Assembly: GCA_030041535.1 (NCBI GenBank)
Contig: JASHNR010000016.1
Span: 1 to 33,716 of the forward strand
Reading direction: 5' to 3'
Length of the DNA stretch: 33,716 nt
DNA from: Nitrosopumilaceae archaeon
GTDB taxonomy: Archaea > Thermoproteota > Nitrososphaeria > Nitrososphaerales > Nitrosopumilaceae
The position numbers and the translations under genes were made by a program. Shown here piece by piece: positions 2,859 to 23,701 of this stretch; the stretch's first letter is position 1, and every line of letters starts with the position of its first letter. The notes beneath the pieces were generated by a model that was not told the DNA's origin, ran no database searches, and was given only the letters and a program-made list of their open reading frames with translations.

Positions 2859-3383
2859 TTAGTGTATATATCCTAGTTCCTCAAGATTTTCAATTATTGT
2901 ATGGAGGCATTGTTCCGGAGTGTTCTTTTCTGTATCCAAAATTATCTCAGGATTTGTTGGCTCTTCGTATGGCGATGATATGCCTGTCATGTTTTGAATC
3001 TCGCCTTTCTGTGCCTTTTTGTATAGTCCCTTTGGATCTCGCTTGATGCATGTATCAAGTGATGCCTTGACATATACCTCGACAAAGTTTGGGATCTCTT
3101 TTCTTGCAAGCGCTCTTGACTCCCGGAACGGCGATACAAGTGACATGATTCCCATTATGTCGTGTTGTGCCAGCATCTTTACAACAGTGATTACCCTCCT
3201 GTTGTGCTCCTTTCTTGCCTCGTCTGTATATGGCAGGTCATGGCTTAGCGTTGTCCGAAGCTCGTCTCCGTCGAAAACGACTGCAGGTATGCCGTGTCTT
3301 TGGCAGTAGCTTTTTAGCAGATCTGCCATGGTAGTCTTTCCGGCACCTGGCAGTCCTGTTAGCCATACAGTGGGAACTTTCAT
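2859..3383 (-). CDS. cysC: Adenylylsulfate (APS) kinase
   Basis: The enzyme phosphorylates APS with ATP to give PAPS, the sulfate donor for sulfotransferases. It has a Walker A loop GLPGAGKT (residues 10-17), FDGDELR for APS/ribose contacts, PFRESRALAR, and the closing signature in which RDPKGLYKKAQKGEI and TGISSPYEEP are typical of CysC. An upstream in-frame extension to 3632 would overlap rmlA and has no family similarity. The ATG at 3383 gives 174 residues, a normal length, and CTAATATGC-type sequence at 3404-3412 lies about 25 bases before it; ATG at 3407 is the alternative. No ATP sulfurylase is in the window. With the sulfotransferase at 13366-14430, its likely job here is sulfation of the glycan rather than assimilation. 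Confidence 0.88.
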   Translation of the reverse strand: MKVPTVWLTGLPGAGKTTMADLLKSYCQRHGIPAVVFDGDELRTTLSHDLPYTDEARKEHNRRVITVVKMLAQHDIMGIMSLVSPFRESRALARKEIPNFVEVYVKASLDTCIKRDPKGLYKKAQKGEIQNMTGISSPYEEPTNPEIILDTEKNTPEQCLHTIIENLEELGYIH

Positions 3384-3552
3384 CACAATAGATTCTATTT
3401 TTTGCATATTAGAGATTCCGTAACTATGTTGGTGAACTTTGTTCCCTAGGTATTCGTATATTTTTATGGTTAAAACGATCTTTCCTTGTTTTCCCATAGT
3501 TGGAACAGGAAGTCTGCTACAATATTGCAAGAGATTGCTGTTAATTGTAAAA

Positions 3553-4617
3553 TTATAGTCGGATTTGTGATCTCTCGCCCAAAAGAAACTGGTGTTTTTT
3601 TGGATGAGTATGGTCTTCAATTTCTGCACCATTAGCTATGATACTGTCTACCAAATGCACCTTGGCATCGATCTTTGCCCCTTCCATTATGATAGAGTTT
3701 TCAATATCACATTTTTTTAGCGATACATTGTTTCCAACACTGGCATAAGGCCCAAGCCTTACTGCAGGCCCTATTGTACAGTTGTCACCAATTATTGTGG
3801 GTCCTGTTACAAACGAGTCTCTTGATATGGTAGTGTTCTTTCCAATCACGATGTTTCCGCGAATCTCAGAGCCGTGGGATATTACAAACTGGTTCGGCGT
3901 GCCAATTGAATCCAAGACGAGCTGATTTGCATGTAAGATATCTTCTGGCGTGCCTGTGTCCTTCCACCAGCCCGTTACCGTATCATACTCTATGGTACCA
4001 CCACTATTCATCAAAAGATCCAGCGCATCTGTTATCTCAAGTTCTCCCCGCCATGACGGCTTTAGTTTGTCTATAACATCAAAGATTTTTGGAGTGAGAA
4101 AATAGATTCCAATCACTGCCAGGTTTGATGTTGGGTTTTTTGGCTTTTCTACTATCTTTTTGATTTTTTTTCCGTCAAGCTCTGCCACTCCAAACCTGGA
4201 AGGATCGTCCACCTCACAGAGAAGTATCATTGCCTCTGCACTAGAGCCTTGGAACTTTTTGGTGTAGTCTACCAGTCCCTTTCGCAAAATGTTATCTCCA
4301 AGATATACGACAAACCGGTCGTTTCCGATAAAATCCTTGCATAGTTTGATTGCATGAGATATGCCAGCTGGCTTGTCTTGGTAAATGTAGGTAATTTTTA
4401 CGCCAAATTTAGAGCCGTCACCGTAGAACTCTTTTACTTTCTCAGGATAGACGTCTCCTATTATGATTCCAATGTCTGTGATTCCTGCCTCTTTGAAGTC
4501 TTCGAGTGCATACTGCGACATTGGCTTGTTCCCAATAGGCAGTAGCTGTTTTGGTCCTGTGTGCGTTAAGGGTCTGAGTCTTGTTCCATGACCGCCATGG
4601 AGTATGATTCCTTTCAT
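3553..4617 (-). CDS. rmlA: Glucose-1-phosphate thymidylyltransferase, long form
   Basis: A 354-residue enzyme making dTDP-glucose from dTTP and glucose 1-phosphate, the first step to dTDP-deoxysugars. The nucleotide loop GGHGTRLRPLT (8-18) and GPKQLLPI with the catalytic-site lysine (about 23) are followed by LGDN (metal/sugar contact) and GWWKDTGTPEDIL. The C-terminal third carries hexapeptide repeats of a left-handed beta-helix (VIGKNTTISRDSFVTGPTII and onward). This is the long-form architecture typical of archaeal and Streptomyces StrD-type enzymes rather than short RmlA. It is the last but one gene of the leftward glycan set, between rmlB and cysC. An AAATATAC box at 4641-4648 suggests its own leaderless promoter. 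Confidence 0.92.
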   Translation of the reverse strand: MKGIILHGGHGTRLRPLTHTGPKQLLPIGNKPMSQYALEDFKEAGITDIGIIIGDVYPEKVKEFYGDGSKFGVKITYIYQDKPAGISHAIKLCKDFIGNDRFVVYLGDNILRKGLVDYTKKFQGSSAEAMILLCEVDDPSRFGVAELDGKKIKKIVEKPKNPTSNLAVIGIYFLTPKIFDVIDKLKPSWRGELEITDALDLLMNSGGTIEYDTVTGWWKDTGTPEDILHANQLVLDSIGTPNQFVISHGSEIRGNIVIGKNTTISRDSFVTGPTIIGDNCTIGPAVRLGPYASVGNNVSLKKCDIENSIIMEGAKIDAKVHLVDSIIANGAEIEDHTHPKKHQFLLGERSQIRL

Positions 4618-4640
4618 TTTGATCCGTGTTATCTAATATG

Positions 4641-4648
4641 GTATATTT
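4641..4648 (-). promoter_or_regulatory. TATA box of rmlA
   Basis: On the minus strand this reads AAATATAC, centred 27 bases before the ATG at 4617. It is one of the clearest leaderless promoter matches in the window. Confidence 0.5.
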
Positions 4649-4721
4649 CAATTTGGTTTTTGTTTCATTTATTCTATGAATAGGTCTAGGCCTTGCTGTA
4701 CCGTCATAAGAAAATTGATTT

Positions 4722-5720
4722 TTACCAGTTTACAGTCCAAGGTTGTGGGTGTAAAGTTTTTTCATCTGCCATAGAATACCACCACTGTGGATTGTTTTGA
4801 TACCATGATACTGTCTCCTGCAAGGCTTGGTCAAACTGGTATCGTGGTTTCCAACCCGTTGCCGTGATTATCTTTGATGCATCAATGGAATATCTCTTGT
4901 CGTGTCCTGGTCTGTCGCCTACGTTTTCTATGAGGTCTTGCGGTTTTTTCATCAGGTTGAGTATTTTTTCAACTATGGTCCTGTTTGCAATCTCGTTCCA
5001 TGCAGTGATGTTATATACCTCACCTGGCTTGCCCTTTTCAATTAATACATCAATTGCTTCTACATGATCCATAACGTAGATCCAGCTTCTGATCTGGTTT
5101 CCCCCTCCATATAACGGGACCTTGAGGTTCTTTGAAGCTCGAATTATTGTCTTTGGGATTAATTTTTCTGGAAATTGATTCGGTCCAAAGTTGTTTGTAC
5201 ACCTTGTTGTGATGCATTTTATGCCGTATGTTCTGTGGTATGACTCTACCAGTAGATCTGCTGCTGCCTTGGTAGCTGAATATGGATTACTTGGCTTTAG
5301 GATATCGTGTTCTGTAAATGATTCCTTGTTCTCTGCATCACCATAAATTTCGTCAGTTGATACATGGATGAATAGCTTGTCGCGTTTTCTTGCAGCTTCA
5401 AGTATGGAATAAGTTCCTAAAACATTTGTCTCTATGAACGGTTTTGGATTTGAGATACTCCTGTCGACGTGTGTCTCTGCTGCAAAATTCACTAGTACAT
5501 CTGATTCCTTTGCAAGACTTGAGACGATATCTTGATTTCGTATGTCATCTTTGATAAAAGAAAAATTTGGATTCTTTTCTATCTCTTTCAAGTTTTCTAA
5601 ATTGGAACCAATTGTCAGACTGTCAAGATTTACTATGATATCCTTTGGTTTGGTTTTTAGATGATTTCTGATAAATGCACTTCCAATAAAACCTGCACCG
5701 CCACACACAAGTAGTTTCAT
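4722..5720 (-). CDS. rmlB: dTDP-glucose 4,6-dehydratase
   Basis: Converts dTDP-glucose to dTDP-4-keto-6-deoxyglucose. It is a 332-residue extended SDR with the NAD loop GGAGFIGS (7-14), the catalytic Asp-Glu pair in STDEIYG (121-127), Y147 and K151 in YSATK, and the downstream TNNFGPNQFPEKLIP and GGGNQIRSWIYVMDHVEA segments diagnostic of RmlB. All catalytic residues are present and the length is normal. It lies between the C-methyltransferase and rmlA in the same orientation, about 100 bases before rmlA. A GTATAAATTC-like element around 5744-5754, at the end of the preceding gene, could act as a promoter. Its product is the branch point used by RmlC, RmlD and probably the C-methyltransferase next door. 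Confidence 0.94.
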   Translation of the reverse strand: MKLLVCGGAGFIGSAFIRNHLKTKPKDIIVNLDSLTIGSNLENLKEIEKNPNFSFIKDDIRNQDIVSSLAKESDVLVNFAAETHVDRSISNPKPFIETNVLGTYSILEAARKRDKLFIHVSTDEIYGDAENKESFTEHDILKPSNPYSATKAAADLLVESYHRTYGIKCITTRCTNNFGPNQFPEKLIPKTIIRASKNLKVPLYGGGNQIRSWIYVMDHVEAIDVLIEKGKPGEVYNITAWNEIANRTIVEKILNLMKKPQDLIENVGDRPGHDKRYSIDASKIITATGWKPRYQFDQALQETVSWYQNNPQWWYSMADEKTLHPQPWTVNW

Positions 5721-5746
5721 ATGTTATCAAACAAATAATTTAGAAT

Positions 5747-7009
5747 TTATACTATCTGTATTTTTGGAATAGGAATGATGTATTTACCACCGTGTTCCTT
5801 GAATTGCTTTGTCTTTCCCATTATTTCGTCAACAAAATTCCATGCAAGTATTAAGAGATAGTCCGGGGGATTGTCTTCAAGACTAGCCATGGATACAATA
5901 GGAATATGACTTCCTGGAGTAAGAAGGCCTTGTTTTGTAGGGGTTTCATCAACTATGTATTTTATTGAATCAGAGTCAATACCGCAGTAGTTCAGTAGAG
6001 TGTTTCCCTTTGCAGAAGCTGCAAAGCCTGCAATTTTTTTTCCATTTTGGCGCAGGTCATGAATGAGTTCAACCAGATTTTTCTTGATGTTTTGAACCTC
6101 GTTTGCAAAATTAAGATAAGAATCTGCATTATAAAATCCCAGATTCTTTTCTACAATAATAAAATCATCAACATTTGAAATAGCATTTTTGGTATGGATA
6201 TTATTTTTTACTGCTCTTACTTCAATTGTACCTCCATGAATAGGGTATTTTTTTATTTTGATTATCTTCATATCATTTTGGTTCAATATATGTTGCAGAG
6301 GCTTTAGAAGGAAATAAGACAAATGTTCATGGTATACGGTATCAAATTCATGCTTTTGCAGTAGATCAATGAGATAAGGAACCTCTACTACAAACATTCC
6401 ATCGTCTCTCAGAGCTGTTCTGACATTTTGGACAAAACTGTGAACATCGTCAACATGTGCAAATACATTAAATGCCGTGATTATTTTTGCGCCTCCATAT
6501 TCTTTTGCAATTTTTGCTGCAGTTTTGTTATCCCAAAAATGGTTTAGAGTCTCAATATCATGTGAGTTGGCAATCTTTGCTAGATTAACTGCAGGTTCCA
6601 CTCCTAGTGTTTTGATCTGTTGTTTTTTGAATTCTTGCAAGAGGCAACCGTCATTGCTTGCAATATCTACAACCAGAGAACCACGATCTAACTTCATTGC
6701 CTCGATTATGTCTGAAGCAAATGTGTTGCAATGTGCCTTGAATGTATTTGATATAGATGACATGTAAAAATAGTCCCTGAACATAATTTCAGGATCAACT
6801 ACCACGCTGAGCTGCGAGAGCGAACAGTCTTTGCAATAACATACTACTAACGGAAATTTTGATTCATTTTTACCAAGATCATTTGGCTTTATCAATCCAT
6901 TTGCAAGTGGTGTGATGCCCAGATCAAGATAAGGTACAAGATTTGCTCCCTTGCAACTCCGACATGACGAAATTGTCCTATATGTAGTGCTGAGCTTTTC
7001 TTCCTTCAT
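5747..7009 (-). CDS. Sugar C-methyltransferase (zinc-binding, SAM-dependent)
   Basis: A 420-residue enzyme with the three-part layout of deoxysugar C-methyltransferases (NovU/TylC3 type). The N-terminal zinc ribbon has cysteines at 16, 19, 59 and 62. A SAM-binding Rossmann domain follows, with VVDIASNDGCLLQEF (motif I, about 112-126) and GVEPA. The C-terminal domain contains AGFAASAKGNTLLNYCGI, DETPTKQG and TPGSHIPI, all family hallmarks. Known relatives methylate C-3 or C-5 of dTDP-4-keto-6-deoxy sugars, so with rmlA and rmlB alongside it predicts a C-methyl-branched deoxysugar. The exact carbon cannot be read from the sequence. It lies between rmlD and rmlB, 26 bases upstream of rmlB, and is probably cotranscribed. 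Confidence 0.87.
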   Translation of the reverse strand: MKEEKLSTTYRTISSCRSCKGANLVPYLDLGITPLANGLIKPNDLGKNESKFPLVVCYCKDCSLSQLSVVVDPEIMFRDYFYMSSISNTFKAHCNTFASDIIEAMKLDRGSLVVDIASNDGCLLQEFKKQQIKTLGVEPAVNLAKIANSHDIETLNHFWDNKTAAKIAKEYGGAKIITAFNVFAHVDDVHSFVQNVRTALRDDGMFVVEVPYLIDLLQKHEFDTVYHEHLSYFLLKPLQHILNQNDMKIIKIKKYPIHGGTIEVRAVKNNIHTKNAISNVDDFIIVEKNLGFYNADSYLNFANEVQNIKKNLVELIHDLRQNGKKIAGFAASAKGNTLLNYCGIDSDSIKYIVDETPTKQGLLTPGSHIPIVSMASLEDNPPDYLLILAWNFVDEIMGKTKQFKEHGGKYIIPIPKIQIV

Positions 7010-7094
7010 GTAATAGAAATTTGTAGTTTATTATGAGTTTATTAAAGTTCGTTATAATTTGAAGCGATGTTTTTTGAGTCAAATGAGAATTTGT

Positions 7095-7808
7095 TTACCC
7101 GTCCTTGTTGGTTCCAAAAAGAGATCTGTATTTAGAGAGATCAAGGGAGGTATCAAAATCTCTAGAATTTGAAAACTCGTTTCTTGTTGCTTTTTTCACA
7201 TGTTTGTCCAGTCTGCTGGCATACTCGAACATATTTTTTCGATCTGTTCCAATGTTGAGTATTCCTGTAATGTTGCTTTTAGTAGCTTTTAGGATCATTG
7301 GGGCAATGACATTAACTGTGTCCTTTGATGTCCACATATCGACAAATGCCTTATCGTATGGAAATGTGACTGGTCCGAAGCTGGTTCTTATAATAAGAGA
7401 ATTTTCGTATTGTCTTACGGCGCATTCGCCGCCAAGCTTTGACCAGGCATATTTGTTTATAGGCAAAATTTCATCGTCTTCCTTGTACTGTCCTTTTTTG
7501 CCCAAATAGACATAATCTGTAGAAATGTAGACTAGTCTTGTGTTTGATTCAATGCACGAGGTTGTAACATTGGCTGTCCCGACTATGTTATCTAAAATGG
7601 CTTTTTTTGGATCTTTCTCTAATTTTCGGTTATCTGTAAAGGCAGCCAAATGCAAGAACGTGTCTGGTTTGTTTTTTCTTATCTGCTCTACAATATTATC
7701 ATAATTTGAAACATCTAGCTCTTTTCGAGTCATCGAGATTATTGACGAGTCCAAGAGTTTTAGTTCTCTACCAAGCAATCCTGCTCCACCAGACATGAGA
7801 ATTTTCAT
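7095..7808 (-). CDS. rmlD: RmlD-like dTDP-4-keto-sugar reductase
   Basis: A 237-residue short-chain reductase of the RmlD subfamily. It has the cofactor loop GGAGLLG (7-13), the active-site STDYVY segment (96-101) and the Y120-AWS-K124 catalytic pair, followed by RTSFGP. In the classical pathway RmlD reduces dTDP-4-keto-rhamnose to dTDP-rhamnose. This protein is some 50 residues shorter than typical RmlD, with a reduced C-terminal substrate domain, so its substrate may be the C-methylated 4-keto sugar rather than plain 4-keto-rhamnose. That is inference from the neighbouring C-methyltransferase. It sits between rmlC and the methyltransferase in the same orientation. Confidence 0.78.
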   Translation of the reverse strand: MKILMSGGAGLLGRELKLLDSSIISMTRKELDVSNYDNIVEQIRKNKPDTFLHLAAFTDNRKLEKDPKKAILDNIVGTANVTTSCIESNTRLVYISTDYVYLGKKGQYKEDDEILPINKYAWSKLGGECAVRQYENSLIIRTSFGPVTFPYDKAFVDMWTSKDTVNVIAPMILKATKSNITGILNIGTDRKNMFEYASRLDKHVKKATRNEFSNSRDFDTSLDLSKYRSLFGTNKDG

Positions 7809-7851
7809 ACTTTGATGATCCTTGTCTTATTATTTTAATCTAGACGATTTA

Positions 7852-8406
7852 TCAATACACAAAATTGTTATCCGCGTTTTCCAGTGTAGGTAGCTCTAGA
7901 TCTTTTTTTATTACAATTGGCTTTCCTGCAGGCCACTTGATAGCCAAGCCTGGATCATTCCAGAGAATTCCCCTCTCATGATCTGGTGAATAGTCTGAGC
8001 TTACCTTGTATAACACATCTGCCTGGTCACTTAATACGTAAAACCCATGTGCAAAGCCCTCGGGTGCATAAAGTAGCCTATGGTTTTTGTCAGAGAGTGT
8101 CTCGCCCACCCATCTTCCGTATGTTGGTGAGCCCTTGCGGATATCAACTACGACGTCAAATATTTCTCCCTTTAGTGCCATCATTAGTTTTGCCTGTGCT
8201 TTTGGATTTTTTTGGTAGTGCAGTCCTCTTACGACTCCTTTTATCGAGTGAGAATAATTATCCTGTACAAATTTTGTGCCGACGCCATTTGCGCTAAACG
8301 CAGACTCTTTGAAGCTCTCCATGAAAAATCCACGATCATCTGAAAATGCTTGAGCTTCTACAAGTATTACCTCTGGGATTGCCAGTCTTGTAAATTTAAA
8401 TGGCAT
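7852..8406 (-). CDS. rmlC: dTDP-4-dehydrorhamnose 3,5-epimerase
   Basis: A cupin epimerase of about 184 residues acting on dTDP-4-keto-6-deoxyglucose. Diagnostic segments are DDRGFFMESF, VQDNYSHSIKGVVRGLHYQ (with the catalytic histidine), GEIFDVVVDIRKGSPTYG, APEGFAHGFYVLSD and YKVSSDYSPDHERGI. I place the start at ATG 8406 (MPFKFTRL) rather than 8427. The shorter form matches the family start, and the minus-strand sequence CCTATTTATC at 8428-8437 is a TATA-like box centred 26 bases before it. The longer start would sit inside that box. The gene follows the giant glycosyltransferase after a 39-base gap. Confidence 0.92.
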   Translation of the reverse strand: MPFKFTRLAIPEVILVEAQAFSDDRGFFMESFKESAFSANGVGTKFVQDNYSHSIKGVVRGLHYQKNPKAQAKLMMALKGEIFDVVVDIRKGSPTYGRWVGETLSDKNHRLLYAPEGFAHGFYVLSDQADVLYKVSSDYSPDHERGILWNDPGLAIKWPAGKPIVIKKDLELPTLENADNNFVY

Positions 8407-8427
8407 GAATAAAAGCAAAATTGGCAA

Positions 8428-8445: not shown

Positions 8446-11400
8446 TTATGCGATTTTTTGCTCCACCATTTTACTTTCTTTTCTAGAATTTTCTTCATAC
8501 CAGAACTGATATGTAGATAAAATATTAGAGTGCTGGTCGTTTGGAAGTCCAAACTTTTGTCCAGAGGAGCCATATGTTGCAGCCCATGTTATGAGATTTT
8601 CATACTGGCCTAATACAACCTCTGGAAAAGCTTTTTGAAGGTCTGGTCTGTTTGCATAGATTTCAACAAGTAATGCAAGCGGCGTTTCTCTTATAGGAAT
8701 TCCCGAAGAGGAGAGACTGAAATCTTCTCGGAGGAGTGTCAAGTTTACATTGTAATAAGGATCTCTTTTCATCAGCACATCTTTCCATCTGTTTACAAAA
8801 GTCTTGGCATCATCTGAAGGCTGCCTAGTACCGCGACTTGCTCCTTCGTAGTGATATAGTTTGGCATAAGGAGTATAAACAATCAGGTATCCCTCTTTTC
8901 TTACTCGCAGACAAAAATCAACGTCATTGTATGCAACTTTCAAGGCAGGATCATATCCATTCACTTTTTTGTAGACATCTCTTTTAACCAGCATGCAAGA
9001 GCCAGTTACGGCACTATAATTTCGAAGCGTTTTGTTAAAACCGAAATAGCCGTTATAAAGATGATTAATGTGACGGAATGCGTGTCCTGCTATGCCTCCA
9101 ACTCCAAGCACCACTCCAGCATGCTGAATTGTCTGTCCTGCGATAAGGCCTGTGTGTGCAGAAGCATCTGGGTATATGAGCTGGGCACCAACAATGCCCA
9201 CCTCCTCTCTTTGACATGGACCAAGCATGGACTCGATCCAATTTTCTGCAATCACTTCTAGATCGTCATTCATGGTAAGAAGATATTCGCCATTTGCATA
9301 TTTTTCTGCAAAGTTGAAAAGATTTGGAATGTTAAACTCTTTTTCATATCTAATTACTTTATGTTTTAGAGACTTGTAAAGTTCCAGCGCTTCCTTTTTT
9401 TCACTTAGATGGTCTACAACAATAATCTCATAGTTATCATAGGTAGTTTTCTTTTCTATGCTAGATAACAGTCTTGATAGCAGATCAGGTCTATCGCGTG
9501 TTGTTATTATTATGGAGACAAGTGGTTTTTTGGTCAGGTTATAATTTATCTTGAAATATCCAAGTTCAGGAAGATATTCTGGAGCTCCGTCAATTTTCCT
9601 TCTTTCTAGCGCCTCTTCAAGGGCTTTTTTTGCAGCAACCTGTGCATATGGTTTTACGTTACCACCCGAAGCTGTTGAAGTAGCAATATTTCTCCAACCA
9701 TACAACAGTCTAGGAATGTGATGTATTTGGCTTGTCTTTTCAACAGCTCTTAAGACCAAATCATAGTCTTGGGAGCCGTCAAAGCCTCTGCGAAAACCAC
9801 CCAATTCATGCAAAAGAGATGCCTTGTACACCATAAAATGAACCATGTAGTGACATGTCATCAACAGATCAGGCGAGTAATCAGGTTTGAAGAACGGATC
9901 AATTCTTTCTCCTTCCGGACTGATGTGGTTTTCATCTGAATAAATAATTTCTAAGTTAGGATTATTATTAATAGATTTTACAACCTCGTATAGTGCATCT
10001 TGGTATATTTCATCATCATGGTCAAGCAATCCGACATAGTGGCCTGTAACCATGGAGAGTGCTTCATTTGATGCACCAGCTATGTTTTGGTTTTTTTCAA
10101 GAAATTTTATTTTTATTCTCTTGTCCTTGTTTGCATATTCCTGCAAGACAGATCGTATGTGAGATGCCGTAGAGGCATCATCTGCTATGCACAATTCCCA
10201 GTTTTCATAGATTTGTCCTCTAACAGAATCAATGGCTAGGCGCAGCCATTTTTCATCTATGTTGTACACAGGCATTACAATACTAATTTTTGGCTTGAGT
10301 TTGAAATTGGCAATCTCCTTTTTCATGTTTGAAATCTCTATTTCGTTGAAATTTTGAAACTCTTTCCAGTTTTTTAGTTGTGTTTTAGATTGAATTGGTT
10401 GATCTAAAAATCTAGTCCCTTTTTGTTTGAAAAAATCCAACGTCATTTTTGTAGAACGTTTTACCCCATAAGCGCTTGAGAATCGCATGAACTGCAATAC
10501 AAGATATAGAAAAGCGCCTCGCCTAGTATTATGTGGAAAGACACTAGATAACATATGTTGTACTTTTAGAAATAATTTCCATGATATACTATTTTTAATA
10601 GTTGAGAGTTCCTCGGTAAGCTTTGTCCTTTCATTTTCTTTTTCTTGTACTGCACGATGTGCAATATCCAAGTATGATTGTAATTCTTTTCTTGCAGTTG
10701 ATTCTTTTTGTACCAGCTCTTCTTGTTGTTGTTTTTCAGCTGTAGTCTTGGCTAGTAGCTCTTCTTGTTGTTGTTTTTCTTCTAGAAGGTTTGATATTTT
10801 CGATTCTTGTTCACGTTTTTGTTTAGATATGACATCAATCTCATTGAGTTTCTGCAGTTCTTCTTCATAGAACTTTTTATGTCTAGTTATTAGAGCAATT
10901 TCTGTTGAATCCCCTATCTTGGAGACTTCTGTATTTATTGCCCAATTTAGTAAATTTTTTAGTTCGCCTTTAGCTGCTTCTGGAAATACACGGCACAGGT
11001 CATCACGCGAAGAGTATACGAAGAGGAGCGCCCCCATAGGGTTATTTTCTAATTCGGATGTTAACGTGGTATAGTCATCATCGCCTTTTATTTTTTGATA
11101 CAGAACTCTATATGGCAAATAGGTATAATTGCTAAGGTTTTGATTAGTATCAGATTTTTTATTTTGGTTTATTTCATTATAATTCCTAGATAGTTGATCA
11201 AGTAATTCTCTTAATGCAGACCTTTCAGTATTAAGCAAGGCTTTTGAAATAACAGAGAATCTAAGTACGTGATCTTTTATTTCAAACAAAAGTCTGAGGC
11301 CTATTCCCAATACATTTTGTGAGTGAAAGTTTGAATATTCCTGTAATGCTAACGTAAAATATTGATCAGTTATCTTTGAGTGCAATAATTTATACAAATA

Positions 11401-12117
11401 TTCATTTGGTACTTTTTGTTGATTTTTAAAAAAGCGAAACCACTCTAGGAAATGTAAATGCGTGTTTTCTGCAAATTCAAAATCGATCATAGTGATCTGA
11501 TCTTCATTTAAAAACAGATTCTTTGGAATAAAATCTCCGTTGCTATATCTTTTGGATGTTTGTTGATTTTTTAGGTATTGTAGAGTATGTGAAAGGAGTT
11601 CTTTTATGAGATCTGCCTCTTTTTGATTGGGGTTATAAATTGCTATAAATTTTTGATGTAAAGAATCTACTTCTGCTTTCAGGCTTTCAAAGGATGAAGG
11701 GATTGATTTTGAGTTCAGATAGTTGTAAAAATGCATTAGTCTTTCAAACATATGTTCAATTTTGGTTTCGTCAGGATGATCTGATAATAATCGATCTAAA
11801 CTCTTACCATTAATTCCTTGTTCAACAAGAAACTTTCTATCATCTATTTCAGTTAGACCTATTGGTCTTGAGATTCCATTTTGTAAATATATTTCATACA
11901 TTTTTTTTTGTAGGTTAAACTCATTTTCCATTAGTTCATTAGAAAATTTATAAAATTTAATTACCAACAACGGATTTGAGTTCGATAGCACTAGAATGTT
12001 TATTCTGCTTTTATCATATTGTCTATAAGACCCACTACCAATTAGAATATGTGACATACGTTCATGCAGTGGGATCTCGTATTGTTCACAGATTTTTTTA
12101 ATGGTATCTCTAATCAT
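8446..12117 (-). CDS. Kinase-like / coiled-coil / tandem GT2 glycosyltransferase fusion
   Basis: A very large cytoplasmic protein of about 1223 residues (numbers below count from the earlier ATG at 12168). Residues 40-245 resemble an aminoglycoside-phosphotransferase or LPS-kinase-like fold: VIKFYK (ATP lysine), NGDFIPKN (catalytic Asp 212, with Asn in place of the usual His) and MIDFEFAE (metal Asp). Residues 374-437 form an AFPEV-type module. Residues 437-530 are a glutamine/glutamate-rich coiled coil with a 14-residue repeat (EKQQQEEL twice), ending in SISWKL. Two GT2 domains follow: 627-840 (ISIVMPVYN, DDAS, LDHDDE) and 881-1135 (VSIIITTRDR, MNDDLE, NDVDFCLRVR). A second AFPEV module closes the protein (1160-1232). 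The layout suggests a processive polymerase linked to a chain-terminating kinase. An AGGA sequence before ATG 12117 favours that start; it overlaps the methyltransferase gene by 8 bases. Acceptor and donor are unknown. Confidence 0.85.
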   Translation of the reverse strand: MIRDTIKKICEQYEIPLHERMSHILIGSGSYRQYDKSRINILVLSNSNPLLVIKFYKFSNELMENEFNLQKKMYEIYLQNGISRPIGLTEIDDRKFLVEQGINGKSLDRLLSDHPDETKIEHMFERLMHFYNYLNSKSIPSSFESLKAEVDSLHQKFIAIYNPNQKEADLIKELLSHTLQYLKNQQTSKRYSNGDFIPKNLFLNEDQITMIDFEFAENTHLHFLEWFRFFKNQQKVPNEYLYKLLHSKITDQYFTLALQEYSNFHSQNVLGIGLRLLFEIKDHVLRFSVISKALLNTERSALRELLDQLSRNYNEINQNKKSDTNQNLSNYTYLPYRVLYQKIKGDDDYTTLTSELENNPMGALLFVYSSRDDLCRVFPEAAKGELKNLLNWAINTEVSKIGDSTEIALITRHKKFYEEELQKLNEIDVISKQKREQESKISNLLEEKQQQEELLAKTTAEKQQQEELVQKESTARKELQSYLDIAHRAVQEKENERTKLTEELSTIKNSISWKLFLKVQHMLSSVFPHNTRRGAFLYLVLQFMRFSSAYGVKRSTKMTLDFFKQKGTRFLDQPIQSKTQLKNWKEFQNFNEIEISNMKKEIANFKLKPKISIVMPVYNIDEKWLRLAIDSVRGQIYENWELCIADDASTASHIRSVLQEYANKDKRIKIKFLEKNQNIAGASNEALSMVTGHYVGLLDHDDEIYQDALYEVVKSINNNPNLEIIYSDENHISPEGERIDPFFKPDYSPDLLMTCHYMVHFMVYKASLLHELGGFRRGFDGSQDYDLVLRAVEKTSQIHHIPRLLYGWRNIATSTASGGNVKPYAQVAAKKALEEALERRKIDGAPEYLPELGYFKINYNLTKKPLVSIIITTRDRPDLLSRLLSSIEKKTTYDNYEIIVVDHLSEKKEALELYKSLKHKVIRYEKEFNIPNLFNFAEKYANGEYLLTMNDDLEVIAENWIESMLGPCQREEVGIVGAQLIYPDASAHTGLIAGQTIQHAGVVLGVGGIAGHAFRHINHLYNGYFGFNKTLRNYSAVTGSCMLVKRDVYKKVNGYDPALKVAYNDVDFCLRVRKEGYLIVYTPYAKLYHYEGASRGTRQPSDDAKTFVNRWKDVLMKRDPYYNVNLTLLREDFSLSSSGIPIRETPLALLVEIYANRPDLQKAFPEVVLGQYENLITWAATYGSSGQKFGLPNDQHSNILSTYQFWYEENSRKESKMVEQKIA

Positions 12118-13147
12118 GGATGACATCTTTCCTAGCAATAATTGAGTAAGACGGATATAGATTTCCAAGTTCGCTACTTGAGAATATTTTGTAAAGTCTT
12201 CTTAATTTTTCATTAAAACTACTTATGGTACCTTCTATTCCTTCATGTTCATCAATGTAATCAAGATTTTCAACTAAATAAGATGATGCATCTTCTTTAG
12301 AAAGATCTATGAATGCATATGGCAGTTTATAATCAGGTAATGCAGCGTAAAAATTCATGGTCTTGAAACCTGCATGTAATAACATTTTTTCATAGTCTTT
12401 TTTACCATGTGTGAATACTCTCAGTTTCTTTCCTGTTTCAGTTTCAAAAATTCTTTCCGCCGTTTCTTTTTCAAGATAGACTAGATCTCGAAAACCAGTA
12501 TGATCATCACGTTCTCCTAAAAGATATTTGAGACCGTATTTGTTTTCAATTCCAATATATAACGCACCGCCTGGTTTCAGAATATCGTAACATTCATTCA
12601 GGATTTTTTGTTGTAGTTCCATAGGATCGCCATCGCTGAAATTACCCACCCATTCTAAGACCCCATTGATAATAATCAAGTCAAATTGATTAGATTCAAA
12701 AATACCGTCAGCGATATTTGCCACTACATATTGAATATTTTTCCTTTCTTCCTGCTCTGCGATTTTTTTAATAAGTTTTATCTTTTCAGGATTACCTTCA
12801 ACTGTCACTACATTACAAAGTCGTGATAGTGGAATTGTTATCTGCCCCCAACCAGCTCCAAGATCTAATGCAAAGTCAGTTTTTTTCACATCCATCAAGA
12901 AAAGAAAATTATCTCGATTCTGACTTGTTATTATCTTATGAAGCCACGGATGACTCTTGCCATATAATTCGTCACTGACTTCTTGCCAATTTTTTTCTGT
13001 TAATTTTTCAATGAATTTATCATAATCATATATATCTATATCGAATAGTCTTATCTTGTCATGTTTGTCGAAATATGAAAAAGTTACATCATCTAACTTA
13101 GATAACTTGGCTTTGTCTTTAAATCGTATTTTAATATCATTGTACAT
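12110..13147 (-). CDS. Class I SAM-dependent methyltransferase, WbdD-like partner
   Basis: A 345-residue protein with a Rossmann methyltransferase core: motif I ALDLGAGWGQ (93-102), the acidic end of strand 2 in VTVEGNP (114-120), VVANIADG, then FDLIIINGVLEWVG and ILKPGGALYIGIENKYGL. The N-terminal 70 residues and the C-terminal YLVENLDYIDEHEG region are not recognised. Its 3' end overlaps the start of the kinase-like giant gene, indicating translational coupling. Bacterial WbdD, which ends O-antigen chains, joins a methyltransferase, a kinase and a coiled coil in one chain, and here the same three parts are encoded by two overlapping genes. I therefore infer that it methylates the terminal sugar or terminal phosphate of the glycan. 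A simple O-methyltransferase on the repeat unit is the alternative. Confidence 0.78.
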   Translation of the reverse strand: MYNDIKIRFKDKAKLSKLDDVTFSYFDKHDKIRLFDIDIYDYDKFIEKLTEKNWQEVSDELYGKSHPWLHKIITSQNRDNFLFLMDVKKTDFALDLGAGWGQITIPLSRLCNVVTVEGNPEKIKLIKKIAEQEERKNIQYVVANIADGIFESNQFDLIIINGVLEWVGNFSDGDPMELQQKILNECYDILKPGGALYIGIENKYGLKYLLGERDDHTGFRDLVYLEKETAERIFETETGKKLRVFTHGKKDYEKMLLHAGFKTMNFYAALPDYKLPYAFIDLSKEDASSYLVENLDYIDEHEGIEGTISSFNEKLRRLYKIFSSSELGNLYPSYSIIARKDVIHD

Positions 13148-13337: not shown

Positions 13338-13374
13338 TATATCTAATCTATCTATTGAATTCAAATTAGATATA
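13338..13374. repeat. 10-base inverted repeat at the sulfotransferase 3' end
   Basis: Perfect arms TATATCTAAT (13338-13347) and ATTAGATATA (13365-13374) flank a 17-base loop that itself contains the palindrome TTGAATTCAA. The right arm covers the TAA stop of the sulfotransferase. It could fold in RNA as a 3' hairpin, but no T-run follows directly in the minus direction, so a terminator role is only possible. Confidence 0.4.
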
Positions 13375-14430
13375 ATTCAACTCTCTCATCATATTTGATG
13401 ATATAGACATTATTTCTTCTTCTTGCTTCTTATTGAAGTATTTTTTATACAATCCTAAAGAATTAGAATCAGGTTTTCTTTTTACGTTATCAAAATTCCA
13501 CTCCATTCCAGGCGATTTTAAATCTGGATGAGGTTTGTTAGCAACATCTAACATTGACTCTTCGAATGGAATTCCTAGAAAGTCTGTTATCATTCTAATT
13601 GTATTACTTGGTTCTGTTACAAGATCCTCATATTTGATTCCTATCACAGGTAATCCTCGTTCCTTGTACTTTAGATACGTAGTGTTCTTTACTAGCCATT
13701 CCAAGGTTAAAAGTCCAATTAGTTTGTTTTTGAATTTTTTTATTTTTTGAATTTCAGATGAAAAGTTATTCTGTATGAATAGATTATCATTTATCCATGA
13801 TTCATACTGTTTAATGGTAGTCTTAATGTTTGGACTTGACTTATGAAGAAGGTTGTACATAGAAGAGACTCTATCCCTAACATCTCTTATCATGAATATT
13901 ATAGGTTGATTATTGTATAACTTTCTCATATGATCAGAGATATTTTGATGAGATTCCAGTGGAAAGGAATTAAGATCATTATTTAAGAGGCATTCACTTA
14001 CTCCTATTGCTTTCAGGCCTAGCAGTTTCTTATTTGATTCAAAAATTTTTTGGCATTTTAGAACTGGCGGATAAACAATGCAATCATATGAATTTCCTTC
14101 TTCAAGACAAGTAACCATGCTGTGACAATTTAAGATTCGTTTCATCAGTGTTGTACCGCTTCGTCCAGCACCAAAGACAAAAATCAAATCAGGTAATGAG
14201 TTCCATACAGGGTGTGGTAGAAAGTTATCAAATTTATTTGCTTGATAATAGAATTCAGCATGATTTGCTAGAAAATCAAATGCTCCTGGGTCATCATACA
14301 AGTTCTGTGATGCATGTGTAGCCCATGTAAGAAGATTTTTTAAATTACCTTCTTGTACTTCGGGAAATGCTTGTTGAAGGGTCTCGCTTTTACCATAATA
14401 TACCAGTAGTAAATTGATTGACTCGAACAT
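13366..14430 (-). CDS. PAPS-dependent sulfotransferase with N-terminal AFPEV module
   Basis: A 354-residue enzyme likely transferring sulfate from PAPS to a sugar hydroxyl. The 5'-phosphosulfate loop is GAGRSGTT (87-94), followed by LEEGN. The 3'-phosphate motif is IRDVRDRVSSMY (181-192), and VIGIKYEDLVTEPSNTI plus DFLGIPFEE are typical of family-3 sulfotransferases. The first 69 residues are a separate module (LLLVYY, AFPEVQEGNLKNLLTWA, HAEFYY) that also occurs twice in the giant glycosyltransferase of the same locus. APS kinase at 2859-3383 could provide the PAPS. The protein has no signal peptide, so it acts in the cytoplasm, before export by the ABC transporter encoded divergently. The start ATG at 14430 has a TTTATAAC box upstream. 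Confidence 0.88.
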   Translation of the reverse strand: MFESINLLLVYYGKSETLQQAFPEVQEGNLKNLLTWATHASQNLYDDPGAFDFLANHAEFYYQANKFDNFLPHPVWNSLPDLIFVFGAGRSGTTLMKRILNCHSMVTCLEEGNSYDCIVYPPVLKCQKIFESNKKLLGLKAIGVSECLLNNDLNSFPLESHQNISDHMRKLYNNQPIIFMIRDVRDRVSSMYNLLHKSSPNIKTTIKQYESWINDNLFIQNNFSSEIQKIKKFKNKLIGLLTLEWLVKNTTYLKYKERGLPVIGIKYEDLVTEPSNTIRMITDFLGIPFEESMLDVANKPHPDLKSPGMEWNFDNVKRKPDSNSLGLYKKYFNKKQEEEIMSISSNMMRELNYI

Positions 14431-14715: not shown

Positions 14716-14735
14716 TACAAAAAGTGTGTTATAAT

Positions 14736-15527
14736 ATGATTAATACGACAAAAAAATCCATTAGAAATGATATTAGCAGATGGAAGTCACTTACAATCGA
14801 CTTATCTCTAACATTTTTAAAATTACGTTACAAAGGCACTGTTTTAGGATTTTTCTGGTCATTTCTTGAACCTCTATTACTTCTTTCAGTATTCTATTTC
14901 ATGTTTAATGATGTTTTTGGCACAAAGATTCCAAATTTTACATTACATGTTTTTGTTGGCTTGATTCTATTTTACATGTTTGTGCGTGGAACATCAATGG
15001 GACTTACAAGTCTTTCATCAAATACACATATAATTATGAATCTCAGAATACCCAAGATAATTCTCCCTCTTTCTTACAACATGACGGCTTTTATTATGAT
15101 GTTATTTGATTTTAGTATTTTCTTTGTATATGTGGTAGTTACGCGATTCTTTCCTCCAACAACTATAATACTTTTGCCTGTTTTTATGATACTCACATTT
15201 TTATTGTCAGTTGGACTTTCATTTCCTCTATCCATTCTAAGCGTTAAACTAAAAGATCTAACTTATATCTGGATTCTCATAACTAATGTAACGATTTTTT
15301 TAAGCCCAATTTTTTGGAGAATGGATAGCATGCCCCCAACAATACGTGAAATACTTCAATACAGTCCTTGGGTTCAGTTAATCACAATGGCACAAGACGC
15401 TACTATTTACAACAAGTTGCCCAATACCATGACATTCTTGTATGTTACAGCTTTCATTTTGGCAGTTCTGGCATTAGGTGTATTCATATTTAAGAAATTT
15501 GAAAAAAAGGTAACGGAGTTTTTGTAG
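14736..15527 (+). CDS. wzm: ABC-2 type polysaccharide/teichoic-acid export permease
   Basis: A membrane protein of about 263 residues of the Wzm/TagG class. The N-terminal amphipathic segment (LKLRYKGTVLGFFWSFLEPL) is the classical family signature, with six hydrophobic spans after it: around LLLLSVFYFMF, HVFVGLILFYMF, MTAFIMMLFDFSIFFVYVVV, IILLPVFMILTFLLSVGLSF, TYIWILITNVTIFLSPIFW and the C-terminal AFILAVLALGVFIF. The tail ends in KKFEKKVTEFL. It forms the channel through which a lipid-linked polysaccharide crosses the cytoplasmic membrane. I prefer ATG 14736 to GTG 14724 because of the TATA box at 14708-14715. The ATPase gene begins 2 bases after its stop. Confidence 0.9.
   Translation: MINTTKKSIRNDISRWKSLTIDLSLTFLKLRYKGTVLGFFWSFLEPLLLLSVFYFMFNDVFGTKIPNFTLHVFVGLILFYMFVRGTSMGLTSLSSNTHIIMNLRIPKIILPLSYNMTAFIMMLFDFSIFFVYVVVTRFFPPTTIILLPVFMILTFLLSVGLSFPLSILSVKLKDLTYIWILITNVTIFLSPIFWRMDSMPPTIREILQYSPWVQLITMAQDATIYNKLPNTMTFLYVTAFILAVLALGVFIFKKFEKKVTEFL
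15515..15518 (+). promoter_or_regulatory. Ribosome-binding site of the TPR-ATPase gene
   Basis: GGAG lies 10 bases before ATG 15529, inside the end of the permease gene. It shows that this second gene of the transcript uses a Shine-Dalgarno site whereas first genes appear leaderless. Confidence 0.45.
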
Positions 15528-15528
15528 T

Positions 15529-17301
15529 ATGTCTGAAATAAGTAAAATTAAGAAATCAAATAGAGCATTTCCAACCAAAACAAAAGAGATTTTATACAAT
15601 TCGGTTAATGAATGCAATGAAATATTAAAAAAATCACCTAACGATCTTGATGCTTTACGAACAAAGGGAATATATCTTCAAGAGCTTTGTTTTTACAATC
15701 CAGAACATATAGAAAGTGCGATAGCCTGTTTTGACAGAGTTTTACAGATTAACAATGAAGACAAAGAAGTATTGAAACGTAAAGCTGCACTATTATCTCG
15801 TAAAGAAACCATCAATCAAGCTATGGAATATTATGATAAAGTACTAAAATTAGACCCTCAGGATTCTGAGGCATGGTGGGGCAAGGGGGTAATCACACAA
15901 CTAGATGGAAAACCATATTTAGCGATTCCCTATTTCGATAAAGCCTTAGAATTAGATCCCTTAGATGCCCGCTCATGGATGCAAAAAGGATTTGCATTGT
16001 CTGCAAGGAGAGAAACATGGGATCAAGCATTAGAATGTTTTACTAAAGCTTTAGAGATAAATTCAGACGATTCAAGAGTTTGGAAAGGTAAAGGTGATAT
16101 CATTCATAAGAAAAATGATTTGGATAACGCGATATTTCATTATAACAAAGCAATATCATTAGATCCATCAGATTGGGAATCTTTATTGCGCAAGGGATTT
16201 GCATTAGCAGGAAAAAATGATTTTGAGAATGCAATAAAATGTTTTGATGAATCTCTATCTATTAAGCCAAATAATATAGAAGTCCTAAGAGGTAAGGGAA
16301 ATGCTCTATATTCCATAAATAAGTATAAAGATGCATTAGACACGTATGAGATAATTACTCAGATTAGTCCAAAATCTTCTGATGGTTGGTTACAAAAAGG
16401 ATTTTGTTTTTTGAAATTAAATAATGAACAAAAGGCATTATATAATTTTGAAATGGCATTAAAAATAAATCCTCAAGACATCATAGCTCAAAAAGAACGA
16501 AGAAGACTTGTAGGTGAGAGAATTGAATCAGAGAAAACTATTTCAAACAAGGTAAATCAATCTTTCAATCAGGATTCCGCAATAATTGTAAACGGAATAT
16601 ACAAGAGCTTTAAAATCCATCATGAAAAAAGGGATTCAGTATTTTCTCTTCTCGCAAATTCATTTTCAAAAAATAATTTTGAGGTTATAGATATTTTGAA
16701 AGATATTAGTTTTAATCTAAACAGAGGTGAAATGTTAGGAGTAATTGGAAGAAATGGAAGCGGAAAAACCACGCTTCTGAGGATTTTGTCTGGCATTATA
16801 AAACCAGACCGTGGTAATGTCAAAATTAACGGTAAATTAGCGCCCTTACTTCAATTAGGAGTTGGATTCAATGGTGAATTAACAGCAAGAGAGAACATAA
16901 TTTTATCAGGCATGCTATTAGGATTCTCAAAAGTTGAGATTAAAAAGAAAGTAGACGATATCATAAAATTTGCAGAGCTTGAAAAATTTTCAGATACAAA
17001 AATAAAAAACTTTTCTAGTGGAATGCACTCCAGATTAGCATTTTCTACAGCAATACAAATAGATCCAGACATTTTGTTGGTAGATGAAGTCTTGGCTGTT
17101 GGAGATATCAATTTTGTTAAGAAAAGCTATAGAGAGTTTTTATCATTTAGAGAGAAGGGCAAATCCATCATTTTTGTATCTCACTCACTTGATCACATAC
17201 GAAATCTCTGTGATAGAGCTATGATACTTGATTCAGGAGAAATCAAAATGATAGGAAAACCTGATGATGTCATACAATACTATATGGGATCAAATTCATG
17301 A
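15529..17301 (+). CDS. wzt: TPR-domain / ABC polysaccharide-export ATPase fusion
   Basis: A 590-residue protein. Residues about 60-325 are tandem tetratricopeptide repeats with the W/Y-x-x-K-G ... A-x-x-x-[YF]-[DN]-K-A-L-x-[LI]-[DN]-P pattern (for example GKPYLAIPYFDKALELDP). Residues about 350-590 are an ABC ATPase of the Wzt/TagH class: Walker A GRNGSGKT (408-415), Q-loop region LLQLGVGFNGELTARENI, signature NFSSGM, Walker B ILLVDE and switch histidine in FVSHS. It powers the Wzm-like permease. Wzt proteins usually carry extra domains at the C-terminus (carbohydrate binding) and none at the N-terminus. Here the C-terminus is bare and the TPR array sits in front, which is unusual. The repeats may dock the cytoplasmic glycosyltransferase/terminator complex. 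Confidence 0.92.
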   Translation: MSEISKIKKSNRAFPTKTKEILYNSVNECNEILKKSPNDLDALRTKGIYLQELCFYNPEHIESAIACFDRVLQINNEDKEVLKRKAALLSRKETINQAMEYYDKVLKLDPQDSEAWWGKGVITQLDGKPYLAIPYFDKALELDPLDARSWMQKGFALSARRETWDQALECFTKALEINSDDSRVWKGKGDIIHKKNDLDNAIFHYNKAISLDPSDWESLLRKGFALAGKNDFENAIKCFDESLSIKPNNIEVLRGKGNALYSINKYKDALDTYEIITQISPKSSDGWLQKGFCFLKLNNEQKALYNFEMALKINPQDIIAQKERRRLVGERIESEKTISNKVNQSFNQDSAIIVNGIYKSFKIHHEKRDSVFSLLANSFSKNNFEVIDILKDISFNLNRGEMLGVIGRNGSGKTTLLRILSGIIKPDRGNVKINGKLAPLLQLGVGFNGELTARENIILSGMLLGFSKVEIKKKVDDIIKFAELEKFSDTKIKNFSSGMHSRLAFSTAIQIDPDILLVDEVLAVGDINFVKKSYREFLSFREKGKSIIFVSHSLDHIRNLCDRAMILDSGEIKMIGKPDDVIQYYMGSNS

Positions 17302-22690: not shown

Positions 22691-23701
22691 ATGCTTATTT
22701 CTTCAACCCCTCTACGAATCTCACTAGGTGGTGGTGGTACCGATCTTCCGTTTTACTATAAAAAATATGAGGGTTTTGTTTTAGGTGCTGCAATTAAAAA
22801 ATATGTTTATCTTAACATTTCAAATCATTTTGAAAAAATAATAAAGCTAAATTATTCTAAAACAGAAATTTGTAGATCCCCTCTCGAAGTACAACACCCG
22901 ATAATACGAGAAGCTCTCAAACTAACAAACATAGAAAATCAAATAGAGATCGGTTCCATAGCAGACTTGCCTGCCCAGTCTGGTCTTGGTTCATCTGGTA
23001 GTTTTACGGTTGGTTTACTCAATGGACTTTTCACTCACCTTGGAAAAAACAAAACCAGAAAGGAACTTGCAGAGATGGCATGTCATATAGAAATGGATTT
23101 GCTAAAGGAACCAGTTGGAAAACAGGATCAATACATTGCATCATACGGCGGATTTTCATGTATAAATATCAACAAACAAGGAAAAGTCAAAGTTGCACCA
23201 TTAAAAATCTCAAATGAATCCATACAAGATTTAGAACACAGCCTGACATTTTTCTATACTGGAGTAATGAGATCGGCATCTAATGTTCTAAAAGACCAGA
23301 AAAAAACAGCAGAAAAAAATAATCAAGTATTTGACTCTTTGACAAGAATAAAGAAAATTGGATTGAAAATAATGAAATGCTTGGAAAAAGATGACTTGGA
23401 TGAATTTGGTAGGTTAATGGATGAACATTGGTTAGAGAAGAAAAAGACATCTGGAAAAATCTCAAATGATATTTTTGACAAATATTATCACTTGGCGAAG
23501 CAATCTGGCGCTTCAGGTGGTAAAATTATTGGTGCAGGTGGAGGAGGCTTTTTTATGTTTTATACTAATACACGAGAAAAGAAAAAAAGAATAAGAAAAG
23601 AATTTATCAAACATGGTCTTAGTGAGGTAAGAATGCCTTTTGAAATGGAGGGAACTAAAATCATATTAAATCTAGAAGGAAGAAGAAATGAGTACCATTA
23701 A
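22691..23701 (+). CDS. hddA: GHMP kinase, D-glycero-D-manno-heptose 7-phosphate kinase type
   Basis: A 336-residue GHMP-superfamily kinase. The N-terminal PLRISLGGGGTDLP (7-20) and the ATP-binding PAQSGLGSSGS (94-104) are those of HddA/FkP-type sugar kinases. Near the end, SGASGGKIIGAGGGGFFMFY is the third GHMP motif. HddA phosphorylates C-1 of heptose 7-phosphate to the alpha-1,7-bisphosphate on the route to GDP-heptose. It overlaps the SIS isomerase gene by 14 bases, and the phosphatase follows directly, the order of a heptose operon. Fucokinase-like activity on another sugar is an alternative, but the neighbours favour heptose. Confidence 0.84.
   Translation: MLISSTPLRISLGGGGTDLPFYYKKYEGFVLGAAIKKYVYLNISNHFEKIIKLNYSKTEICRSPLEVQHPIIREALKLTNIENQIEIGSIADLPAQSGLGSSGSFTVGLLNGLFTHLGKNKTRKELAEMACHIEMDLLKEPVGKQDQYIASYGGFSCININKQGKVKVAPLKISNESIQDLEHSLTFFYTGVMRSASNVLKDQKKTAEKNNQVFDSLTRIKKIGLKIMKCLEKDDLDEFGRLMDEHWLEKKKTSGKISNDIFDKYYHLAKQSGASGGKIIGAGGGGFFMFYTNTREKKKRIRKEFIKHGLSEVRMPFEMEGTKIILNLEGRRNEYH

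What the first reader, a model, noticed from the sequence alone, without database searches (positions are those of the whole stretch)
8446..13147. WbdD-like chain terminator split and fused to a double glycosyltransferase polymerase
Two overlapping genes encode, in order, a methyltransferase, a kinase-like domain, a coiled coil and two GT2 domains. In E. coli O8/O9-type polysaccharides the terminator WbdD is methyltransferase + kinase + coiled coil (a molecular ruler), and the polymerase is a separate protein. Here the kinase and ruler are joined covalently to the polymerase while the methyltransferase is a separate, translationally coupled protein, and an ABC exporter is encoded next door. 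An archaeal polymerase with built-in length control would be new to me. Domain identities are read from motifs; the functional link is inference.
Basis: partly seen in the sequence, partly recalled or inferred. Interest (0 to 1): 0.8.

Follow-up and report, generated by a model that had tools for sequence, protein, structure and literature searches.

The report
Archaeal sugar-chain builder with built-in ruler
An ammonia-oxidising archaeon carries a gene pair that appears to build a surface sugar chain, measure it with a coiled-coil rod and cap it with methyl-phosphate before export; bacteria have such machines, but this archaeal version is new to us, and its relatives swap the capping enzyme and often encode the rod as tandem DNA repeats whose copy number could set its length.

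Summary
Two overlapping minus-strand genes (12110-13147 and 8446-12168) encode a methyltransferase, then a kinase, a coiled coil and two GT2 domains. They lie beside divergent wzm/wzt, in a run of genes with sulfotransferase, rml and APS-kinase genes, in an ammonia-oxidising archaeon. The interpretation needs correction. The kinase is aminoglycoside-phosphotransferase-like, not WbdD-like. The true relative is the Klebsiella O7 ORF6 family, where methyltransferase, kinase, coiled coil and two GT2 form one experimentally proven polymerase-terminator. Seven bacterial loci show the same methyltransferase/kinase-GT split. So a ruler fused to a polymerase is known in bacteria; the archaeal form is a new variant. 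What looks new is archaeal: a conserved scaffold carries interchangeable caps (methyltransferases, kinase, sulfotransferase), and in ten loci from ten ammonia-oxidiser genomes, including a second copy in this one, the rod holds 98-100% identical tandem DNA repeats of exactly one or two heptads. Repeat copy number could therefore set glycan length. Function is inferred; nothing was assayed.

The parts
12110..13147 (-). Class I SAM methyltransferase (345 aa), O7-ORF6-type, with motif IENKYGLKYLLGERDDHTG; predicted second step of capping
   Evidence: bacterial relatives beside wzm/wzt
8446..12168 (-). Fused protein kinase-WA-coiled coil-GT2-GT2-WA (1240 aa from TTG; likely ATG start at 12117 or 12126, overlapping the methyltransferase gene)
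11368..12117 (-). APH-like kinase domain (aa 18-267), predicted first capping step
   Evidence: AlphaFold plus Foldseek, profile match to PDB APH kinases, profile found in or next to the methyltransferase in 71 of 80 bacterial loci
11533..11535 (-). Predicted catalytic Asp212 of the kinase (GDxxxxN), equivalent to D441 of Klebsiella ORF6
   Evidence: invariant in A4, equivalence via P. asturiensis Asp443
10855..11052 (-). WA domain copy 1 (aa 373-438), consensus RxDLQxAFPEVxxGxxxxLxxWA, without library match
10582..10857 (-). Predicted coiled-coil ruler (aa 438-529; model helix 420-541) with a decayed 42-nt periodicity
10489..10584 (-). Segment after the coiled coil (SISWKLFLKVQHMLSSVFPHNTRRG), similar in position and S-W/F-R/K pattern to the segment after the WbdD coiled coil; membrane contact inferred, helical moment not unusual for the window protein
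9568..10362 (-). GT2 module 1 of the predicted polymerase
8758..9552 (-). GT2 module 2 of the predicted polymerase
8485..8694 (-). WA domain copy 2 (aa 1159-1228)
13366..14430 (-). Sulfotransferase with an N-terminal WA domain, first gene of the same run
14724..15527 (+). Wzm-like ABC exporter permease
   Evidence: PF01061; NCBIfam galactan Wzm, weak
15529..17301 (+). Wzt-like ATPase at the C-terminal end with an N-terminal TPR array; no C-terminal carbohydrate-binding domain
2859..8427 (-). rmlC, rmlD-like, C-methyltransferase, rmlB, rmlA, APS kinase: predicted donor-sugar and PAPS supply, downstream in the same run of genes

Best explanation
The gene pair is an archaeal, two-gene version of the Klebsiella O7 ORF6 type of polymerase-terminator. 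On the inner face of the membrane the two GT2 modules extend a lipid-linked polysaccharide, probably from dTDP-rhamnose-like sugars made by the rml genes downstream. The coiled coil holds the kinase away from the polymerase, so that only chains long enough to reach it are phosphorylated at the non-reducing end. The separate, translationally coupled methyltransferase then methylates that phosphate. The capped chain no longer grows and leaves through Wzm/Wzt. Shown here: domains, folds, gene context and homology. Inferred: substrates, order of reactions, length control and export coupling. The kinase-methyltransferase cap was probably gained from bacteria and joined to a polymerase scaffold typical of ammonia-oxidising archaea.
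For: Kinase fold and O7-type kinase profile. The P. asturiensis relative keeps all six ORF6 SAM-site residues at identical numbers (Y28, Y66, G91, G93, E112, Y158) and the kinase Asp at 443 versus 441; its GT half is 36% identical to the window over 721 residues. The window keeps the GxG pair (G97, G99), E117 and Asp212. Of 80 bacterial relatives, 71 have the kinase in or right after the methyltransferase, 50 have Wzm or Wzt in the fetched DNA, 43 within 1.5 kb, and seven have the same split with GT modules. The coiled coil lies between terminator and polymerase. GT tree: window groups with two ammonia-oxidiser proteins, SH-aLRT 88, 51% identity. The kinase was found in no other genome of a 398-genome sample of the phylum. 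D441A in ORF6 abolishes phosphorylation and export (PMC11231755).
Against: Wzt here has no C-terminal carbohydrate-binding module, the part that reads the cap in the bacterial terminated systems; it has an N-terminal TPR array instead. The second copy of the methyltransferase-kinase pair in this genome (contig C6) has no exporter nearby, and many bacterial methyltransferase-kinase fusions of about 566 aa have none in the fetched flanks, so the pair can act elsewhere. A sulfotransferase in the same run could be the true cap. The carbohydrate-binding domain of ORF6 is not found; a WA domain sits there instead. ORF6 itself was compared through a relative and through the published residue numbers, not directly.
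Confidence: 0.72

Rival explanations
1. Decoration, not termination: kinase and methyltransferase modify sugars inside the chain or on a precursor, and the coiled coil only oligomerises the enzyme. Length is set by something else.
For: The second gene pair lies among housekeeping genes without an exporter; 30 of the 80 bacterial loci, many of them 566-aa fusions, show no Wzm/Wzt in the fetched DNA; Wzt lacks a cap-reading domain.
Against: Three of the four closest bacterial methyltransferases sit directly behind wzt, and the characterised relative ORF6 is a proven terminator (PMC11231755).
Confidence: 0.2
2. A split WbdD: a WbdD orthologue whose kinase and ruler were joined to the polymerase.
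For: Same order methyltransferase-kinase-coiled coil; a similar S-W-R/K segment after the coiled coil; class I methyltransferase fold shared.
Against: Kinase profile does not match WbdD but matches the O7 type; the fold search gives aminoglycoside kinases as best hits, whereas WbdD resembles Src-type kinases (PMC3482155).
Confidence: 0.04
3. Sulfate is the real cap: the sulfotransferase encoded in the same run terminates the chain, and kinase plus methyltransferase serve another step.
For: Sulfotransferase with the same WA domain and an APS kinase in the same run; in two relatives a sulfotransferase occupies the cap position of a coiled-coil protein, in one of them fused to GT2.
Against: Here the sulfotransferase has no coiled coil, and the kinase occupies the cap position of the fused protein.
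Confidence: 0.12

Closest known systems
Klebsiella pneumoniae O7 ORF6 (PMC11231755)
   Same: Methyltransferase of the same family, APH/AmiN-like kinase, coiled coil, two GT2 modules, beside wzm/wzt and rml genes
   Different: One polypeptide in Klebsiella, two genes here; a carbohydrate-binding domain before the coiled coil there, a WA domain here; the bacterial terminated systems have a cap-reading domain on Wzt, absent here
WbdD of E. coli O9/O9a
   Same: Methyltransferase-kinase-coiled coil order; ruler logic
   Different: Kinase of another class (Src-like); polymerase WbdA is a separate protein
WbbB of Klebsiella O12
   Same: Polymerase, ruler and terminator in one chain
   Different: Terminator is a Kdo transferase, not kinase plus methyltransferase
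WsaE of Geobacillus stearothermophilus (PMC2943079)
   Same: Methyltransferase cap fused to two GT modules, ABC export, rml genes
   Different: No kinase; 2-O-methyl cap; bacterial S-layer glycan
Sulfurovum sp. L058/L085 and Lachnospiraceae L075, L081, L107, L120 (found here)
   Same: Methyltransferase gene followed by kinase-coiled coil-GT2-GT2 gene, the window's arrangement; five of these six have wzm/wzt in the fetched DNA (L081 is a short contig)
   Different: Bacterial; no WA domain seen; kinase domains only 13-20% identical

Membership tests
Klebsiella O7 ORF6-type terminator | Methyltransferase of this family with SAM-site residues | tested here: met
   GxG, acidic residue and aromatic position retained (W166 for Y158); 25-26% identity to the bacterial members aligned
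Klebsiella O7 ORF6-type terminator | APH/AmiN-like kinase directly after the methyltransferase, with catalytic Asp | tested here: met
Klebsiella O7 ORF6-type terminator | Coiled coil after the kinase | tested here: met
Klebsiella O7 ORF6-type terminator | C-terminal GT2 modules (in some members) | tested here: met
Klebsiella O7 ORF6-type terminator | All modules in one polypeptide (Klebsiella form; not universal among relatives) | tested here: not met
   Methyltransferase is a separate gene, as in 21 of the 80 bacterial loci that have the kinase in the next ORF
Klebsiella O7 ORF6-type terminator | Methyl-phosphate at the non-reducing end | not testable with these tools
   Needs chemistry
WbdD | Kinase domain of the WbdD (Src-like) class | tested here: not met
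   PMC3482155
WbdD | Terminator protein separate from polymerase | tested here: not met
   GT2 modules in the same chain
WbbB | N-terminal Kdo transferase terminator | tested here: not met
   N-terminal domain has an APH-like kinase fold
ABC-dependent glycan export with cap recognition | Carbohydrate-binding module at the C-terminus of Wzt | tested here: not met
   Wzt ATPase domain ends the protein; TPR array is N-terminal
Coiled-coil chain-length ruler | Glycan length follows coiled-coil length | not testable with these tools
   Shown for WbdD (PMC5082667), not here

The most novel reading that the evidence does not exclude
Ammonia-oxidising archaea own a family of glycan assembly proteins in which a conserved scaffold (WA domain, coiled-coil ruler, GT modules) carries interchangeable caps (several methyltransferases, kinase plus methyltransferase, sulfotransferase), and in which the ruler gene is often a minisatellite of exactly one or two heptads. 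Gain or loss of repeat units would lengthen or shorten the rod in whole heptads and so make surface glycan length an evolvable, possibly rapidly varying trait.
Probability: 0.4. Interest if true: 0.78.

Novelty: new variant of a known kind. Interest (0 to 1): 0.62.

Why it matters
How archaea set the length of surface polysaccharides is, to our knowledge, not described; our paper searches found no archaeal case of a coiled-coil terminator. This locus, with its relatives, gives concrete genes to test in an abundant group of the nitrogen cycle. The heptad-unit tandem repeats would offer a natural length dial: repeat number, rod length and chain length should change together, which can be checked in strain collections and long-read metagenomes. 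Sulfotransferase-ruler-GT fusions suggest a cap chemistry, sulfate, that our searches did not find described for this pathway.

Tried and rejected
Direct sequence search of the kinase half against PDB: nothing. First genome-contig scan with two archaeal methyltransferases chose poor patterns and found nothing; repeated with four rows it worked. Viral contigs found no relative. Kinase tblastn in plasmids: none. WbdD orthology rejected. Chance kinase hits from iterative profile search considered: rejected because 71 of 80 loci have the hit in or right after the methyltransferase and only four other ORFs match, one of them the kinase of L047 set 1.1 kb downstream. Contamination of the contig considered: rejected, because the GT half groups with ammonia-oxidiser proteins and the WA domains are shared with relatives. 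The second AlphaFold job is too weak to say anything on the WA domain fold. Helical moment after the coiled coil is not unusual in the window protein, so membrane contact there is not shown.

Full report
WHAT IS THERE. The window is contig C10 of an unnamed archaeal genome with an archaeal 16S gene and two archaeal AmoA genes, so an ammonia oxidiser. On the minus strand a run of close genes reads sulfotransferase (13366-14430), methyltransferase (12110-13147), fused protein (8446-12168), rmlC, rmlD-like, C-methyltransferase, rmlB, rmlA, APS kinase (down to 2859). Wzm and Wzt are divergent on the plus strand (14724-17301). Fused-protein residues below use the TTG numbering of the 1240-aa ORF; ATG starts at 12126 or 12117 overlap the methyltransferase stop by 17 or 8 nt.

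KINASE. Pfam is silent on the N-terminal part. An alignment of 21 relatives has invariant D, N, D and a nearly invariant E in the pattern GDxxxxN...IDxE. AlphaFold gives mean pLDDT 77, above 80 over most of the first 250 residues. Foldseek against PDB returns aminoglycoside phosphotransferases, E 4e-7, probability 1.0. A sequence profile also ranks corramycin and aminoglycoside phosphotransferases first. hhalign: probability 95 with the O7-type kinase of P. asturiensis, 6 with WbdD.

COILED COIL. A COILS-type score gives 438-529 (matrix recalled from memory, checked on WbdD and WbdA). A 623-residue model shows one helix of about 122 residues (420-541), with pLDDT 73-84 in its middle; the rest of that model is unreliable.

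RELATIVES IN BACTERIA. tblastn in plasmids found P. asturiensis with wzm, wzt and a 1457-aa protein, and Citrobacter with wzm, wzt and a 649-aa protein. The P. asturiensis protein carries every ORF6 SAM-site residue named in PMC11231755 at the same number and a kinase Asp at 443 (ORF6: 441), so it stands in for ORF6, whose own sequence we did not retrieve. A genome scan gave 463 confirmed relatives, of which 80 were kept. In 71 of 80 the kinase profile hits in or directly after the methyltransferase: 50 fused, 21 next ORF. Fifty loci have Wzm or Wzt, 43 within 1.5 kb. Seven have the window's split, methyltransferase then kinase-GT (coiled coil scored in six). The closest methyltransferases (37-40% identity: Opitutae, Paenibacillus) are separate genes too, mostly followed by kinase proteins without GT2.

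RELATIVES IN ARCHAEA. In 398 genomes sampled from the phylum the kinase occurs only in this genome, twice; the methyltransferase in one other, distant genome. The second pair (contig C6) is methyltransferase plus kinase-coiled coil without GT, far from an exporter. The GT half, however, groups with proteins of other archaea of the same order. These share the scaffold but not the cap: methyltransferase-WA-coiled coil-GT2-GT2-WA (G023), methyltransferase-coiled coil-GT2-GT2-WA (G057), sulfotransferase-WA-coiled coil-GT2 (G371), sulfotransferase-WA-WA-coiled coil (G010, contig end), methyltransferase-WA-coiled coil (G026, contig end), FkbM methyltransferase-coiled coil (G330, G488). Most lie beside Wzm/Wzt. 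The WA domain has no Pfam or PDB match, occurs in 10 of 151 family genomes, and six of those are among the 21 with Wzm (p 5e-4).

TANDEM REPEATS IN THE RULER. Ten loci from ten genomes of the family, including this genome's second copy, hold 98-100% identical tandem repeats of 42 nt (nine) or 21 nt (one) inside these coiled-coil proteins: exactly two or one heptads. Unit sequences differ between genomes (at most 43% identical). Four contigs end inside the array and a fifth array abuts a gap of N, so true arrays are longer. In 40 control stretches from genomes of the same family, one array passes the same filter (21 nt) and none is 42 nt; 10 of 28 loci versus 1 of 40, p 4e-4. Control stretches do hold other perfect minisatellites, so repeat growth is common in these genomes and what is special is the unit length. 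The loci were picked for Wzm or WA, and the test was made after seeing the pattern. Several units score poorly as coiled coils when repeated alone. One locus, G073, has a 33-nt unit (11 residues) instead. The window's ruler has no intact array but shows excess identity at a 42-nt shift (0.43 against 0.33 +/- 0.02 in codon shuffles, 0 of 500), as expected of a decayed array. In E. coli O9a, changing coiled-coil length changes glycan length (PMC5082667).

MECHANISM. See best explanation. The weak points are the missing cap-reading domain on Wzt, the exporter-free second copy, and the unknown role of the sulfotransferase.

NOVELTY. Fusion of ruler and polymerase is known from bacteria (ORF6-O7, WbbB; WsaE for methyltransferase plus GTs), and the split form occurs there too, by the loci found here. 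New as far as we could check: the archaeal occurrence, the exchange of caps on an archaeal scaffold, sulfotransferase caps, and heptad-unit minisatellite rulers. One Micrarchaeota-labelled MAG (L114) has an all-in-one protein, but it groups with proteobacterial sequences and may be a binning error.

Noticed in passing
L016:1199-1412; L034:5938-6043; L036:8030-8130; L038:1-107; L126:3607-3871; L130:1-134; L135:10958-11077; L137:2748-2891; L140:1-169; L142:2516-2675: Near-perfect 42-nt or 21-nt in-frame tandem repeats (one or two heptads) inside coiled-coil proteins, mostly beside Wzm/Wzt, in ten ammonia-oxidiser genomes; four contigs end inside an array.
   Followed up: partly
10855-11052, 8485-8694, 14224-14430 and relatives: A ~65-residue domain (RxDLQxAFPEVxxGxxxxLxxWA) without Pfam or PDB match, shared by glycan assembly proteins of ammonia-oxidising archaea; one relative (L146) has a protein with at least seven copies.
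   Followed up: partly
L033:8481-10876 (contig C6 of the same genome): Second methyltransferase plus kinase-coiled coil pair, not fused to GT, low GC (29% against 39% of its flanks), no exporter nearby; perhaps a second ruler acting on the single Wzm/Wzt found in this genome.
   Followed up: partly
L142:1153-4257; L036:6553-8133: Sulfotransferase in the cap position of coiled-coil proteins (fused to GT2 in L142), suggesting sulfate as a chain cap.
   Followed up: partly
15529-17301: Wzt with a long N-terminal TPR array and no C-terminal carbohydrate-binding domain; other exporter ATPases of the family vary in length (about 240-565 aa).
   Followed up: no
22691-24875 and 32933-33637: HddA-like kinase, SIS-domain isomerase, HAD phosphatase and a nucleotidyltransferase: looks like a D-glycero-D-manno-heptose nucleotide pathway in an archaeon.
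   Followed up: no
L114:1056-6503: All-in-one 1815-aa protein on a contig labelled Micrarchaeota; GT part groups with proteobacteria, possible binning error; also carries a 21-nt tandem repeat in its coiled coil.
   Followed up: partly
L043:9689-11646; L030:366-2403: Methyltransferase gene next to an APH-type kinase gene in a haloarchaeal plasmid and in a distant archaeon of the phylum, without coiled coil seen.
   Followed up: no
L051-L055, L060, L061, L072, L086, L100: Methyltransferase-kinase fusions of about 566 aa in Lachnospiraceae and other Clostridia without Wzm beside them: a second use of the same enzyme pair.
   Followed up: no
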